Of a DNA stretch of 64,000 nucleotides, positions 14,027-51,673 are shown piece by piece; the first letter of the stretch is position 1, and each line of letters starts with the position of its first letter. The notes under the pieces were generated by a model, which saw only the letters and a list, made by a program, of their open reading frames with translations, did no database searches and was not told the origin of the DNA. This stretch comes from Pseudomonadota bacterium (GTDB lineage Bacteria > Desulfobacterota > Desulfobacteria > Desulfobacterales > RPRI01): assembly GCA_018817425.1 (NCBI GenBank), contig JAHITX010000033.1:1-64000 (forward strand), in the 5' to 3' direction. Position numbers and translations under genes: made by a program.

Positions 14027-14353
14027 ATGGTTGAAGTAACACCAATGGCTAGCAAACAGATAGCCGAATATTTTGAAGGGAAAGAAGCTTCACCGATCAG
14101 GATTTTTTTAAATCAAGGTGGCTGAGGCGGGCCGTCTCTGGCATTGGCTCTGGATGAGCCTAATGAATCTGACAAAATATATGAAGTTGACGGATTTAAG
14201 TATATAATTAATCAGGAATTTTTGGAGAAAGCAAAACCGGTTAAAGTAGATTATGGCCAAATCGGTTTTAAAATTACATCGGGATTCGATATGGGTGCTC
14301 CTTCTGCATGCTCAAGTTGCGGCACAGGTGGTTCTTGCAGCACCGAATCATAA
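14027..14353 (+). CDS. HesB/IscA-like selenoprotein (in-frame TGA read as Sec33)
   Basis: ATG 14027 has a strong AGAAGGAGGG ribosome site. Translation meets TGA at 14123-14125 (codon 33) inside FLNQGG-U-GGPSLALALDEP, where relatives have a conserved Cys (GGCGGP). The same frame then runs on with clear homology (EVDGFKYIINQEFL, then GFKITSGFDMG) to a Cys-rich tail ACSSCGTGGSC and stop, giving 108 residues. HesB-like selenoproteins are a known bacterial class. A stem-loop suited to be the SECIS lies 16 nt downstream. Family members are small, IscA-like proteins thought to bind iron or Fe-S clusters. A pseudogene is unlikely because the rest of the frame is intact. Confidence 0.88.
14142..14165 (+). 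promoter_or_regulatory. Bacterial SECIS-like stem-loop of the HesB-like gene
   Basis: CATT-GGCTC (14142-14150) pairs with GAGCC-(T)-AATG (14156-14165), leaving loop TGGAT and one bulged U on the 3' side. It begins 16 nt after the TGA and carries guanines in the apical loop, as SelB-binding bacterial SECIS elements do. A bulged U is also a feature of the E. coli fdhF element. Drawn by hand; energies not calculated. Confidence 0.65.
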
Positions 14354-40143: not shown

Positions 40144-40478
40144 ATTCACCAAATGCCGTAAAAAAACCAAGGGTGACCAAAATAATAATCTATTTTAAAT
40201 CAAACTATTATATGTTTAGTTTTCCAAATATTTAAAACGTAAACTTATTAAATATTTTTTAATTATATTTATGTCAAGCAATTTTCAAAATACCGGCAGG
40301 GTAACCACATTTGGATTTAATTTGTTCTTTTACAAGCCTTTAAACTCATAAGCTTATAAACTGTCTTTTTCTTAGAACTTAATTGATTTTATATAAATAC
40401 CGGTGTAAAAATATTATTATGTGTTTTATGAATGTTATGGTCAATTCCCCTATTTCAAATCAAACAACGGAGGATTCG
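40144..40478. other. Intergenic region upstream of sodN
   Basis: AT-rich divergent spacer. Contains CAGGGTAACCACATTT at 40297-40312, a near-copy of segments at 10914 and 45296. An in-frame ORF extension from 40383 was not accepted because the ribosome site lies at 40469. No firm promoter boxes. Confidence 0.35.
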
Positions 40479-40949
40479 ATGATGAAAACCTTTAAAAAAG
40501 TAATGTTGTTAATCACCTTTATTACAGTCAGTTATAGTATGATTGTACCCCAAACAGGGTATGCTCACTGTCAGATTCCATGTGGAATTTACAATGATTA
40601 TGCCAGGGTTCAATCGATGCTTGAAGATACCGATACCATAGAGAAATCAGCCAAATTAATTGCTGAATTGGCAGGAAAACCTGATGCGCAATCTCAAAAC
40701 CAATTGGTTCGCTGGGTAATGAACAAGGAAAAACACGCCCAAAACATCATCTCTACAATCAGTGATTACTTTTTAACCCAAAGGATTAAGCCGGATCAAA
40801 AAGATTATTCCGAACGTTTAATAAAACATCATACGGTAATCATTGCTGCAATGAAAGCTAAACAAAATGCTGATGTCAAATATGCAAAAGCCTTAAGGGA
40901 AAGCATCCAAGCTCTCTTATCTTACTATCCTGAACACACGCATAATTAA
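40479..40949 (+). CDS. sodN: Nickel superoxide dismutase with Sec-type signal peptide
   Basis: 156 residues. Start ATG 40479 (or the adjacent ATG 40482) follows GGAGG at 5 nt. The signal peptide MMKTFKKVMLLITFITVSYS ends in TGYA, and the next residue is His30 of the nickel hook HCQIPCGIY (His30, Cys31, Pro34, Cys35, Tyr38). NiSOD needs a free N-terminal His as ligand. In actinobacteria a dedicated protease (SodX) exposes it; here signal peptidase cleavage after YA would do so on export. The rest is the four-helix NiSOD fold (LVRWVMNKEKHAQNI). Protects an anaerobe's periplasm from superoxide. No sodX is adjacent. Confidence 0.92.
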   Translation: MMKTFKKVMLLITFITVSYSMIVPQTGYAHCQIPCGIYNDYARVQSMLEDTDTIEKSAKLIAELAGKPDAQSQNQLVRWVMNKEKHAQNIISTISDYFLTQRIKPDQKDYSERLIKHHTVIIAAMKAKQNADVKYAKALRESIQALLSYYPEHTHN

Positions 40950-42605: not shown

Positions 42606-43772
42606 ATGCCTCTTGAAAAAAATAACAGATTTTCTCTGCAAAATCATGATAATACACAGTTTAAGCTGACACCGGTAATTGAATCAACCAAAGGGGCTTC
42701 AGTCGATAAACCTACCTGCTGAGGGCCGCCAACCTCTGCCGGTGGCGGAGAAATAAACGAGAAAGTTCCCGGTTTTATCAAATGGCTATCTACAGGAGCT
42801 GGATATGTGCCTCAAGTTTCCACAAAGCTTACCTTTGCCGATCATCTCGGCACCTGGAAAGCCCGCTGGGGTGTTGGTCGTATGAATTATATGGTACCAC
42901 CCGGCCTTTATGCAATCGGAACACCGACAGAAGATGATCCGGTAATAGTAACCGCTAACTATAAAATGACCTATGACATCGTCCGCAGTGTTCTGACAGG
43001 ATATAATGTCTGGCTTCTCGTCCTTGAAACCTATGGCATCAATGTTTGGTGTGCTGCCGGAAAAGGATCTTTCAGCACACAAGAACTGGTGCAGCGTATA
43101 GCTTTATCCAATCTGGCCAGAATTGTATCTCACCGCCGTCTTATTCTACCGATTTTGGGTGCGCCGGGAGTAGCGGCTCACGAAGTAAAAAGGCAAACCG
43201 GCTTTAACATCAGATATGCGGCAATACGGGCCGGAGATATTGTGCAATATCTGGAAAACAACATGAAAACTACCGCTCAAATGCAGAAACAAACATTCAC
43301 GTTCCGGGAGCGAGCAGTACTCATCCCTGTTGAATTGTTACTGGAAATGAAAGTAACTGTCATTGCAGTGACGACACTGTTTATTATAGCAACAGTGTTG
43401 AATGGGATTCACTGTGGTCTCATGGCAGTTTACGCATATCTTGGCGCTGTGTTTTCCGGTATCGCGGTTGCGCCTCTGCTTCTTCCATGGCTTCCCGGAA
43501 AGAGCTTTGCCTTCAAGGGATTTCTAACAGGATTAGCATGGATTGCTGCCTTTTATTTTCTTGCCGACGGACAAGACTGGAATGTATTAATCATTGCTGC
43601 TGCTTTTCTGGCTATCCCTGCTGTAAGCGCCTTTTACACGCTGAATTTTACCGGATGCACTCCCTTTACTTCACGTTCGGGTGTAAAAAAGGAGATACGG
43701 TTCGCAGTACCTGCTATGGCAATTGCAGTTATACTGAGTGTATTCTTTGTATTTTCGGGAAAATTTCTGTGA
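42606..43772 (+). CDS. hgcA: HgcA, mercury-methylating corrinoid protein, with in-frame TGA (putative Sec39)
   Basis: 388 codons from ATG 42606. The corrinoid domain has the diagnostic cap helix GINVWCAAGKGSF, with Cys149 as the expected lower ligand to cobalt, plus WKARWGVGRMNYMVPPGLYAIG and LILPILGAPGVAAHEVKRQTGF. The C-terminal ~170 residues form about five membrane helices. HgcA passes a methyl group from the corrinoid to Hg(II). TGA at 42720-42722 falls in KPTC-U-GPPTSAGGG, where many relatives have CCGPP; the frame and homology continue through it. No start codon exists between the TGA and GTG 42807, which has AGGAG 8 nt upstream and is the non-Sec alternative start. Such a start would drop conserved residues before VPQVST. 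hgcB follows by 16 bp. Confidence 0.87.
42726..42748 (+). promoter_or_regulatory. SECIS-like stem-loop following the hgcA TGA
   Basis: CCGCC (42726-42730) pairs with GGCGG (42744-42748); after a bulged A, ACC pairs with GGT, leaving loop TCTGCC. That is eight G-C-rich pairs starting 3 nt after the TGA, with a loop G 16 nt downstream. It stands out in this AT-rich DNA. Spacing is at the short end for bacterial SECIS elements. Confidence 0.55.
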
Positions 43773-43788
43773 AAAATCCGGAGGATCT

Positions 43789-44076
43789 GTGAAAGGTTTT
43801 AGCTATCTGAGTAATGTGTCAACACTTAAGCTTGATACAAACAAATGTATTGGTTGCGGCAGATGTTTGGAAGTCTGTCCACACCAGGTGTTTTCATTAG
43901 AAGAAGGAAAAGCTATGATCACCTGTTTCGATGCCTGCATAGAGTGTGGTGCCTGCGCCAGGAATTGTCCTTCGACTGCTCTTTTTGTTGATGCCGGTGT
44001 CGGTTGCGCAAATGGAATAATTAAAGAATGGATTAATGAACAAAATATTTTTTGTGTACGTAATAAGTGCTGCTGA
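43789..44076 (+). CDS. hgcB: HgcB, ferredoxin partner of HgcA
   Basis: 95 residues from GTG 43789, set by GGAGG four bases upstream; an earlier in-frame ATG would read back into hgcA. Two [4Fe-4S] motifs: Cys20/23/26/30 (CIGCGRCLEVCP) and Cys50/53/56/60 (CIECGACARNCP). Cys73 follows in GVGCANG, and the protein ends in the vicinal pair Cys94-Cys95. This arrangement matches what is known of HgcB, where the ferredoxin reduces the HgcA corrinoid and the extra thiols are thought to handle Hg(II). HgcA and HgcB are both required for methylmercury formation. Confidence 0.93.
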   Translation: MKGFSYLSNVSTLKLDTNKCIGCGRCLEVCPHQVFSLEEGKAMITCFDACIECGACARNCPSTALFVDAGVGCANGIIKEWINEQNIFCVRNKCC

Positions 44077-50473: not shown

Positions 50474-50680
50474 TTTAGTATATGACATTTCAAATGGAAT
50501 ACATTTACGGATATGCAAAAACAACCGGCAGAGAGCCGATATGCCCCGGTTCGGAATAAAATAAGTTGAGTTTACTTCAAACGGCTTAATATGAAAAACC
50601 CTTTTACGCTTTTGCAAAAAGACGGTTTTTTGTTTTTAAAAATTACCAGGATTGTAAAAATTCAAATTACGGACTTGCAA

Positions 50681-50881
50681 CTATTTATCCGGCCTTCTTG
50701 CCCGTCTCTTATCATCAAATATATTCACAGCTTTTTTTAAGAATAATGATTTCCAGTTTTTGATCTGATTGGGATGCAGTGCGTATTGTGTAGCCAAGTC
50801 GTTTAGGCTCTTCTTATTATTAATTAATTCTAAAACCACTTTAGCCTTAAAGTCACCGGTATATGTTTTGCGATTATTCAT
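50681..50881 (-). CDS. Short IS3-family OrfA-like HTH protein, copy 1
   Basis: 66 residues from ATG 50881 (AGGAAAG 8 nt upstream; an upstream ATG at 50917 adds 12). KTYTGDFKAKVVLELINNKK and LHPNQIKNWKSLFL are the helix-turn-helix of IS3/IS911 OrfA transposase subunits. It stops about 30 residues earlier than a normal OrfA, has no leucine zipper, and no OrfB follows. A second copy of exactly the same length lies at 51364. Either both are relics of one decayed element, or a short DNA-binding protein has been kept. Confidence 0.7.
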   Translation of the reverse strand: MNNRKTYTGDFKAKVVLELINNKKSLNDLATQYALHPNQIKNWKSLFLKKAVNIFDDKRRARRPDK

Positions 50882-50966
50882 TAAATAAACTTTCCTGTAG
50901 AAATATATATATTTCATAACGTAACTTAAACATAAGATAATTATTTTAAAAAAGAGAGTTACAGAC

Positions 50967-51155: not shown

Positions 51156-51363
51156 TAAATCAGCCTGGAACGGGACAGGTATTCCATAATGATTTGTCAG
51201 GAATTGCCTTTATATTTATAATACTTCAAATTTGTAGCCGATTCCATATACTGAATAGACAGAAACAAGTGGTATCTGATACTAATTTTCATAATTTATC
51301 TTAAAAACCGTTATCAACAGTAACTTAAAAAAAAATATTCTTATAAAATTGAGAACTCTGCTA

Positions 51364-51564
51364 TTATCCATCCGCTCTTCTTATTCGTCTTTTATCGTCA
51401 AATACATTCACTGCTTCTTTCAGAAATAAAGATTTCCAATTTTTTATTTGATTTGGATGCAGTTCATATCGCACTGCCAATTCTTTAAGATTTTTTTTGT
51501 TATTAATTAATTCCAGTACAACTTTAGCCTTAAAGTCTCCGGTATATGTTTTGCGCTTATTCAT
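51364..51564 (-). CDS. Short IS3-family OrfA-like HTH protein, copy 2
   Basis: 66 residues; AGGAAGG precedes the ATG. About 80% identical to copy 1 at 50681 (KTYTGDFKAKVVLELINNKK, LHPNQIKNWKSLFLKEAVN), ending at the equivalent codon (RIRRADG versus RARRPDK). Upstream DNA is also similar (TTCCTCTATAAAC versus TTCCTGTAGAAAT, then CATAGCGTACTT versus CATAACGTAACTT). So the two copies arose by duplication of a unit of about 280 bp. Same interpretation as copy 1. Confidence 0.7.
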   Translation of the reverse strand: MNKRKTYTGDFKAKVVLELINNKKNLKELAVRYELHPNQIKNWKSLFLKEAVNVFDDKRRIRRADG

Positions 51565-51673
51565 CAGAAAAGACCTTCCTCTATAAACATTTCTATCTCA
51601 TAGCGTACTTCAGTATAATTTGAGTTACAATATTCAGGTTTAAAATCATGACCACTTATATTTTATTGTTGGG

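What the first reader, a model, noticed from the sequence alone, without database searches (positions are those of the whole stretch)
42606..43772. HgcA with a putative selenocysteine in its N-terminal Cys-Cys-Gly-Pro-Pro motif
The hgcA frame contains TGA at codon 39, exactly where an N-terminal CCGPP motif would have its second Cys (C-U-G-P-P). The frame is open and HgcA-like on both sides, a G-C-rich stem-loop follows within 3 nt, and the window holds another convincing selenoprotein. A selenol next to a thiol in a mercury-methylating protein is chemically striking, because selenolates bind Hg(II) far more tightly than thiols. Seen: frame, TGA, hairpin. Known: Cys/Sec exchange in selenoproteins; HgcA function. 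Inferred: decoding and role. I cannot say whether Sec-HgcA is already described. A non-Sec start at GTG 42807 with an AGGAG site remains possible.
Basis: partly seen in the sequence, partly recalled or inferred. Interest (0 to 1): 0.95.

Follow-up and report, generated by a model that had tools for sequence, protein, structure and literature searches.

The report
Selenocysteine in mercury-methylating protein HgcA
A bacterial gene for the mercury-methylating protein HgcA contains an internal UGA that is almost certainly read as selenocysteine; such HgcA selenoproteins had already been predicted, and this case adds an RNA decoding signal and comparative support, while the role of the selenium remains untested.

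Summary
Confirmed. The hgcA frame (42606-43772) has TGA at 42720-42722 in C-U-G-P-P. The protein is HgcA (NF040863, 439.8 bits), with hgcB directly downstream. The genome holds tRNA-Sec (tca), selA, selB and selD. On a tree of 117 related HgcA rows this column is TGA in 80, TGC/TGT in 23 and neither in 14.

The probable decoding element is 42734-42750 (CTCTGCC-GGT-GGCGGAG): 11 nt after the TGA and 17 nt long, the same layout as E. coli fdhF. Six outer pairs are intact in 43 of 49 clade members, wobble bases in the stem are strongly constrained, and the hairpin is broken in 3 of 3 clade members that have Cys instead. Reinitiation at GTG 42807 is disfavoured.

The idea is in print: a 2026 review lists HgcA as a 'CU' selenoprotein, citing Haft & Gwadz 2023; PNAS 2024 repeats it. 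This is a well-supported new member. The likeliest role, inferred only, is a soft Hg(II) ligand on a disordered N-terminal tether.

The parts
42606..43772 (+). hgcA, read through the internal TGA: 388 residues, HgcA corrinoid protein with five-helix membrane domain
   Evidence: (NF040863 439.8 bits over residues 68-387)
42720..42722 (+). in-frame TGA, predicted selenocysteine codon 39 (C38-U39-G40-P41)
   Evidence: TGA in 80, TGC/TGT in 23 of 117 tree rows
42734..42750 (+). predicted bacterial SECIS hairpin, 7 bp, loop GGU, 11 nt after the TGA
42807..42809 (+). GTG, the alternative (non-Sec) start; disfavoured
43789..44076 (+). hgcB, dicluster ferredoxin; Cys (not Sec) in GVGC and a C-terminal Cys-Cys
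   Evidence: (NF040864 119.1 bits, cut-off 99)

Best explanation
hgcA of this bacterium is a selenoprotein gene. UGA at codon 39 is read as selenocysteine by SelB and tRNA-Sec, directed by a 17-nt hairpin 11 nt downstream, giving an HgcA whose disordered N-terminal tail ends in a vicinal Cys-Sec pair (C-U-G-P-P) just before the corrinoid-binding domain. Supported by computation: the TGA, the Sec machinery, Cys/Sec exchange, the hairpin. Inferred: that decoding happens in the cell; that the Cys-Sec pair captures Hg(II) (or takes CH3Hg+) and passes it to or from the corrinoid, as proposed for the Cys pair on the flexible C-terminal tail of HgcB. My odds: about 0.95 for Sec decoding, about 0.5 for the Hg-ligand role. 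The confidence below is for decoding.
For: HgcA identity 439.8 bits and HgcB next door. tRNA-Sec 75.6 bits with anticodon tca, selB 380.9, selA 601.2, selD 383.6 bits, each over its cut-off. Column 39 is TGA in 80, TGC in 17, TGT in 6 of 117 tree rows, with at least 6 Sec/Cys changes on a tree built without that column. Hairpin: pair-by-pair 46-49 of 49 for the six outer pairs and 39 of 49 for the inner one; in 38 rows with the SAGGG peptide the stem Gly codon is GGA in 34 against 17% of that residue's codons elsewhere in the same genes, the preceding one GGC/GGT in 38 against 58%, Ala GCC in 36 against 47%, whereas the loop and pre-stem codons vary. Changes on both sides of a pair occur, e.g. 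U-A to C-G in 6 rows and G-C to A-U in 2. 11-nt spacing and 17-nt hairpin equal E. coli fdhF. Three Cys-bearing members of the clade have 5, 4 and 2 of 7 pairs. The stretch between TGA and GTG 42807 evolves like coding sequence: 70% identical residues, 60% of differences in codon position 3, against 72% and 62% in the core. The codons before the TGA are conserved: Cys in 53 of 53 rows, Pro in 52 of 53 at -2 and -3. Tail: residues 1-43 pLDDT below 50.
Against: No peptide or selenium data. In isolation the window's hairpin is not unusually stable (z -0.19 to -1.34 in four folds), and for the 49-row clade the mean folding z against synonymous recoding is only -0.18, because the Gly-rich peptide already gives G-C-rich RNA; the position-specific tests carry the case. 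15 of 49 rows reach 0.05 in the per-row synonymous test, and 6 of 49 lack one or more of the six outer pairs. Rows are related, so the binomial figures overstate independence. Presence of selA does not discriminate: 31 of 31 genomes scored TGA and 27 of 30 scored without TGA have it. For the Hg role: at least four Bacteroidota HgcA (L087, L089, L091, L093) start after the motif and 10 further rows have neither Sec nor Cys-Cys there, so the pair is not indispensable to HgcA.
Confidence: 0.95

Rival explanations
1. The TGA is a true stop ending a short leader peptide; HgcA is made by (re)initiation at GTG 42807 (321 aa).
For: A GTG with an AGGAG upstream is present, the 321-aa frame is open, and the NF040863 profile starts at residue 68, that very codon.
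Against: Of 50 clade rows, 29 have a start-capable codon at that column and only 2 (window included) also have an SD-like site; residues 40-67 are as conserved, with as strong a third-position bias, as the core; Cys replaces TGA in relatives; a conserved hairpin sits where a SECIS would.
Confidence: 0.03
2. The Cys-Sec pair is a redox element (selenenylsulfide/selenolthiol), keeping the cap-helix Cys or the corrinoid reduced or sensing oxidation, rather than a mercury ligand.
For: Vicinal Cys-Sec followed by Gly resembles the C-terminal Gly-Cys-Sec-Gly of animal thioredoxin reductase (recalled, no call). The review says many selenoproteins are homologous to thiol oxidoreductases or hold redox motifs (passage).
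Against: Four of 80 Sec rows lack Cys directly before Sec, three of them (L020, L037, L123) with other residues between or around, so a strict vicinal disulfide-like pair is not always kept; HgcB already supplies electrons (PMC7305189 passages).
Confidence: 0.25
3. The tail is a binding or assembly element (for HgcB, a second protomer or a methyl donor protein) and Sec is a passenger of history.
For: Tail predicted disordered; at least four Bacteroidota HgcA lack it; some relatives have neither Sec nor Cys-Cys.
Against: C38, the residue at 39, G40 and P41 are invariant in 49 aligned rows, while much of residues 1-36 is not (that set is mostly Sec rows).
Confidence: 0.2
4. Sequencing error or pseudogene.
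For: A single in-frame stop in a draft genome of 147 contigs.
Against: The same TGA occurs in 80 of 117 tree rows from independent assemblies, cultured isolates among them.
Confidence: 0.01

Closest known systems
HgcA as a 'CU' selenoprotein (NF040863; table of the 2026 review PMC13188914, its refs 61 and 63, the latter Haft & Gwadz 2023 J Bacteriol 205:e0025922)
   Same: Same family, same predicted motif (Cys-Sec), predicted from sequence.
   Different: I saw the review's table row and reference list only; the 2023 paper is not held, so I cannot say whether this clade, its SECIS hairpin or the hairpin loss after Sec-to-Cys change are in it.
HgcB as a selenoprotein (NF040864, motif GVGU; same review)
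   Same: Partner protein of the same operon, also listed with Sec.
   Different: Here HgcB has Cys at that place: GVGC in the window, and 104 of 104 complete HgcB read in the related loci have GxGC.
Cys-Cys HgcA of relatives (CCGPP)
   Same: Same column, same core protein; 23 of 117 rows.
   Different: Cys for Sec; three such members inside the window's clade lost the hairpin.
HgcB Cys94/Cys95 tail of strain ND132
   Same: Vicinal soft-ligand pair on a disordered tail of the same complex, proposed to acquire and deliver Hg(II) (PMC7305189, passages).
   Different: On HgcB's C-terminus, two thiols, mutated and tested; here on HgcA's N-terminus with a predicted selenol, untested.
E. coli fdhF SECIS
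   Same: 11-nt spacer and 17-nt hairpin with GGU in the loop.
   Different: Window hairpin is a continuous 7-bp stem with a 3-nt loop; fdhF has a bulge and a larger loop.

Membership tests
HgcA (NF040863) | Score over the curated cut-off | tested here: met
   439.8 bits, cut-off 275
HgcA (NF040863) | Cap-helix motif N-V-W-C-A-A-G-K and membrane helices | tested here: met
   NVWCAAGK at 146-153, invariant in A1; long helices 233-266 to 360-387; best PDB match is the modelled HgcA 9a0b, E 1.3e-20
HgcA (NF040863) | hgcB adjacent | tested here: met
   43789-44076, NF040864 119.1 bits, cut-off 99
HgcA (NF040863) | Mercury methylation activity | not testable with these tools
   needs an assay
Bacterial selenoprotein gene | In-frame TGA aligned with Cys in homologues | tested here: met
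   TGA 80, TGC 17, TGT 6 of 117 rows
Bacterial selenoprotein gene | Sec machinery selA, selB, selC, selD in the genome | tested here: met
Bacterial selenoprotein gene | SECIS hairpin shortly after the TGA | tested here: met
   42734-42750; conserved pairing and wobble constraint. No trained SECIS predictor was on hand, and global fold z-scores are weak
Bacterial selenoprotein gene | Selenium in the protein | not testable with these tools
   needs 75Se labelling or mass spectrometry

The most novel reading that the evidence does not exclude
The Cys-Sec pair on HgcA's disordered N-terminal tether is the Hg(II)-loading (or CH3Hg+-accepting) ligand of the complex, a selenol counterpart of HgcB's Cys94/Cys95 tail, so that mercury methylation in these lineages depends on selenium; in addition, the RNA hairpin has shaped the adjacent peptide (GPPTSAGGG), which drifts once Sec reverts to Cys.
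Probability: 0.4. Interest if true: 0.8.

Novelty: new member of a known kind. Interest (0 to 1): 0.45.

Why it matters
Mercury methylation by HgcAB makes the neurotoxin methylmercury. If the Sec is used, methylation by these Geobacter-, Geomonas- and Syntrophus-like lineages would depend on selenium supply and on the Sec machinery, which makes a selenium link to methylmercury formation testable in cultured isolates (Geomonas, Oryzomonas, Pelotalea and Geomesophilobacter species are among the carriers). It also warns annotators: the standard model starts after the motif, so gene callers can cut the protein at the alternative start.

Tried and rejected
Fold z-scores alone: not informative, the peptide itself encodes a G-C-rich stem. 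Rfam gathering scan of the window: 0 matches. selA co-occurrence as a test: not discriminating, 31 of 31 against 27 of 30; the three without a match are genomes at most 81% complete. HgcB tail as a sign of redundancy with a Sec-HgcA: fewer than two Cys in the last nine residues in 10 of 73 Sec rows and 2 of 19 Cys rows, so no clear link; L050 and L018 have none. A window-wide scan for TGA-split frames with long halves gave seven sites, of which only the hgcA one lies in a protein-like frame by my reading; shorter frames in 27 chosen stretches between genes gave 15 segments, of which I followed the IscA/HesB one. Pfam gave no match for that one at 0.001. Row L089 was first scored Sec by my script because of an unrelated upstream TGA in a Bacteroidota locus; I rescored it as lacking the motif before the final counts.

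Full report
What is there. The frame from ATG 42606 to the TGA stop at 43770-43772 has one internal TGA, at 42720-42722, in ...DKPTC-U-GPPTSAGGG.... Read through, the protein is HgcA: NF040863 439.8 bits against a cut-off of 275, residues 68-387; Pfam CdhD 48.5 bits. The next gene, 43789-44076, is hgcB: NF040864 119.1 bits, cut-off 99. An AlphaFold2 model (mean pLDDT 85.2) best matches the published modelled HgcAB complex 9a0b and then corrinoid iron-sulfur proteins.

Machinery. The same genome (5.1 Mb, 147 contigs, 99% complete) holds tRNA-Sec (75.6 bits, anticodon tca), selB (380.9), selA (601.2) and selD (383.6 bits, itself with one in-frame TGA). The window has a second selenoprotein gene, IscA/HesB type, at 14027-14353 with TGA at 14123 (NF038090 113.6 bits, cut-off 85).

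The column across relatives. I read 121 HgcA loci from 123 fetched with the HgcA query or at the window itself and put 117 on a tree built from the core after the motif. At this column 80 have TGA, 17 TGC, 6 TGT; 14 have neither, four of which lack the N-terminal part. Among the 103 Sec or Cys rows the tree needs at least 6 changes. In 76 of 80 Sec rows Cys precedes Sec directly; in 66 Gly-Pro follows. Sec rows fall in several parts of the tree: the window's own group of 58 rows (55 Sec, 2 Cys and 1 without the N-terminus; Geobacter-like and Syntrophus-like titles), a CUGPxxELPPE group of 9, and a more mixed group with CUP and similar motifs. In a sample of 395 genomes of the phylum, 116 have an HgcA match; by my hand count of the match table, 28 of 59 matches whose alignment reaches residue 39 contain an in-frame TGA; not each of those was read at the column.

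The decoding signal. In the window the hairpin CTCTGCC-GGT-GGCGGAG at 42734-42750 starts 11 nt after the TGA. E. coli fdhF, fetched as a yardstick, has 11 nt and then a 17-nt hairpin with GGU in its loop. In 49 Sec rows with the same spacing, the six outer pairs are standard in 46, 48, 49, 48, 48 and 49 rows and the inner one in 39; all six outer pairs hold in 43 of 49. Changes on both sides occur, e.g. U-A to C-G in six rows and G-C to A-U in two. Within the 38 rows that encode SAGGG, codons in the stem are fixed beyond the genes' own usage (GGA 34 of 38 against 17%; GGC/GGT 38 of 38 against 58%; GCC 36 of 38 against 47%), while the Gly codon before the stem and the one in the loop vary. The other Sec groups encode different peptides after the Sec but also hold hairpins near this place: mean z against synonymous recoding -1.65 (9 rows) and -1.97 (8 rows), against -0.05 for 20 Cys rows. 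The window's own clade does not stand out in that test (mean z -0.18, 49 rows), nor does the window's fold by itself; its support is positional. Three clade members with Cys instead of Sec have 5, 4 and 2 of the 7 pairs (L046, L085, L119), as expected once the signal is no longer needed.

The alternative start. GTG 42807 with AGGAG exists. Of 50 clade rows, 29 have a start-capable codon there and 2 also an SD-like site. Between TGA and GTG, 70% of residues match the window on average and 60% of differences are in codon position 3, near the core's 72% and 62%; just upstream of the TGA the figures are 46% and 46%, but the residues next to it are fixed (Cys 53 of 53).

How it may work. Residues 1-43 are predicted disordered (pLDDT below 50), so C38-U39 sits on a flexible tail before the corrinoid domain. 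In the 49-row alignment, mostly Sec rows, C38, the residue at 39, G40 and P41 are invariant, like the cap-helix Cys. For HgcB of strain ND132, the double mutation of its tail Cys pair lost 95% of activity and the pair is proposed to take up and deliver Hg(II) (PMC7305189, passages). A selenol-thiol pair on the HgcA tail could do the same; this is inference from chemistry and anatomy. Against a need for it: Bacteroidota rows without the tail, and rows with neither Sec nor Cys-Cys. A redox role is the main rival.

What is known. The review PMC13188914 (2026; I saw passages and part of the reference list) lists HgcA, NF040863, motif CU, and HgcB, motif GVGU, among predicted selenoproteins, citing Haft & Gwadz 2023. 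PMC11588087 (2024; passages) says some hgcA and hgcB homologues may be selenoproteins. Searches for HgcA with selenocysteine or selenoprotein, and for mercury methylation with selenoprotein, found in the held library no paper with an experimental test in their listings; the 2023 paper is not held. So the kind is known, this gene is a new member, and the function is open.

Noticed in passing
window 14027-14353 (+), TGA at 14123: Second selenoprotein gene: IscA/HesB family with Sec (NF038090, 113.6 bits, cut-off 85), G-G-U-G-G-P motif and a G-C-rich fold after the TGA.
   Followed up: partly
own genome, L112: selD itself has one in-frame TGA in its match, so SelD is probably a selenoprotein too.
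   Followed up: no
genomes G001-G007 against G000: Of the same-genus genomes, only G006 has a close HgcA (73%, Sec); G001-G005 and G007 have a Cys-type HgcA at 43-45% identity, further than Geobacter- and Syntrophus-like HgcA. This hints at horizontal transfer of the Sec-type hgcA.
   Followed up: partly
L020, L037, L123, L136: Four Sec rows lack Cys directly before Sec (RU, GU, LU, and reversed order U-C), so Sec can stay while its neighbour changes.
   Followed up: no
window 40455-40949 (+): Ni superoxide dismutase-like protein (TIGR02753 39.7 bits, below the cut-off of 90) with HCQIPCGIY near the mature N-terminus.
   Followed up: no
window about 50658-50885 and 51347-51624: Two similar frames on the + strand opposite what looks like a short transposase-type protein on the - strand; perhaps two copies of an insertion element.
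   Followed up: no
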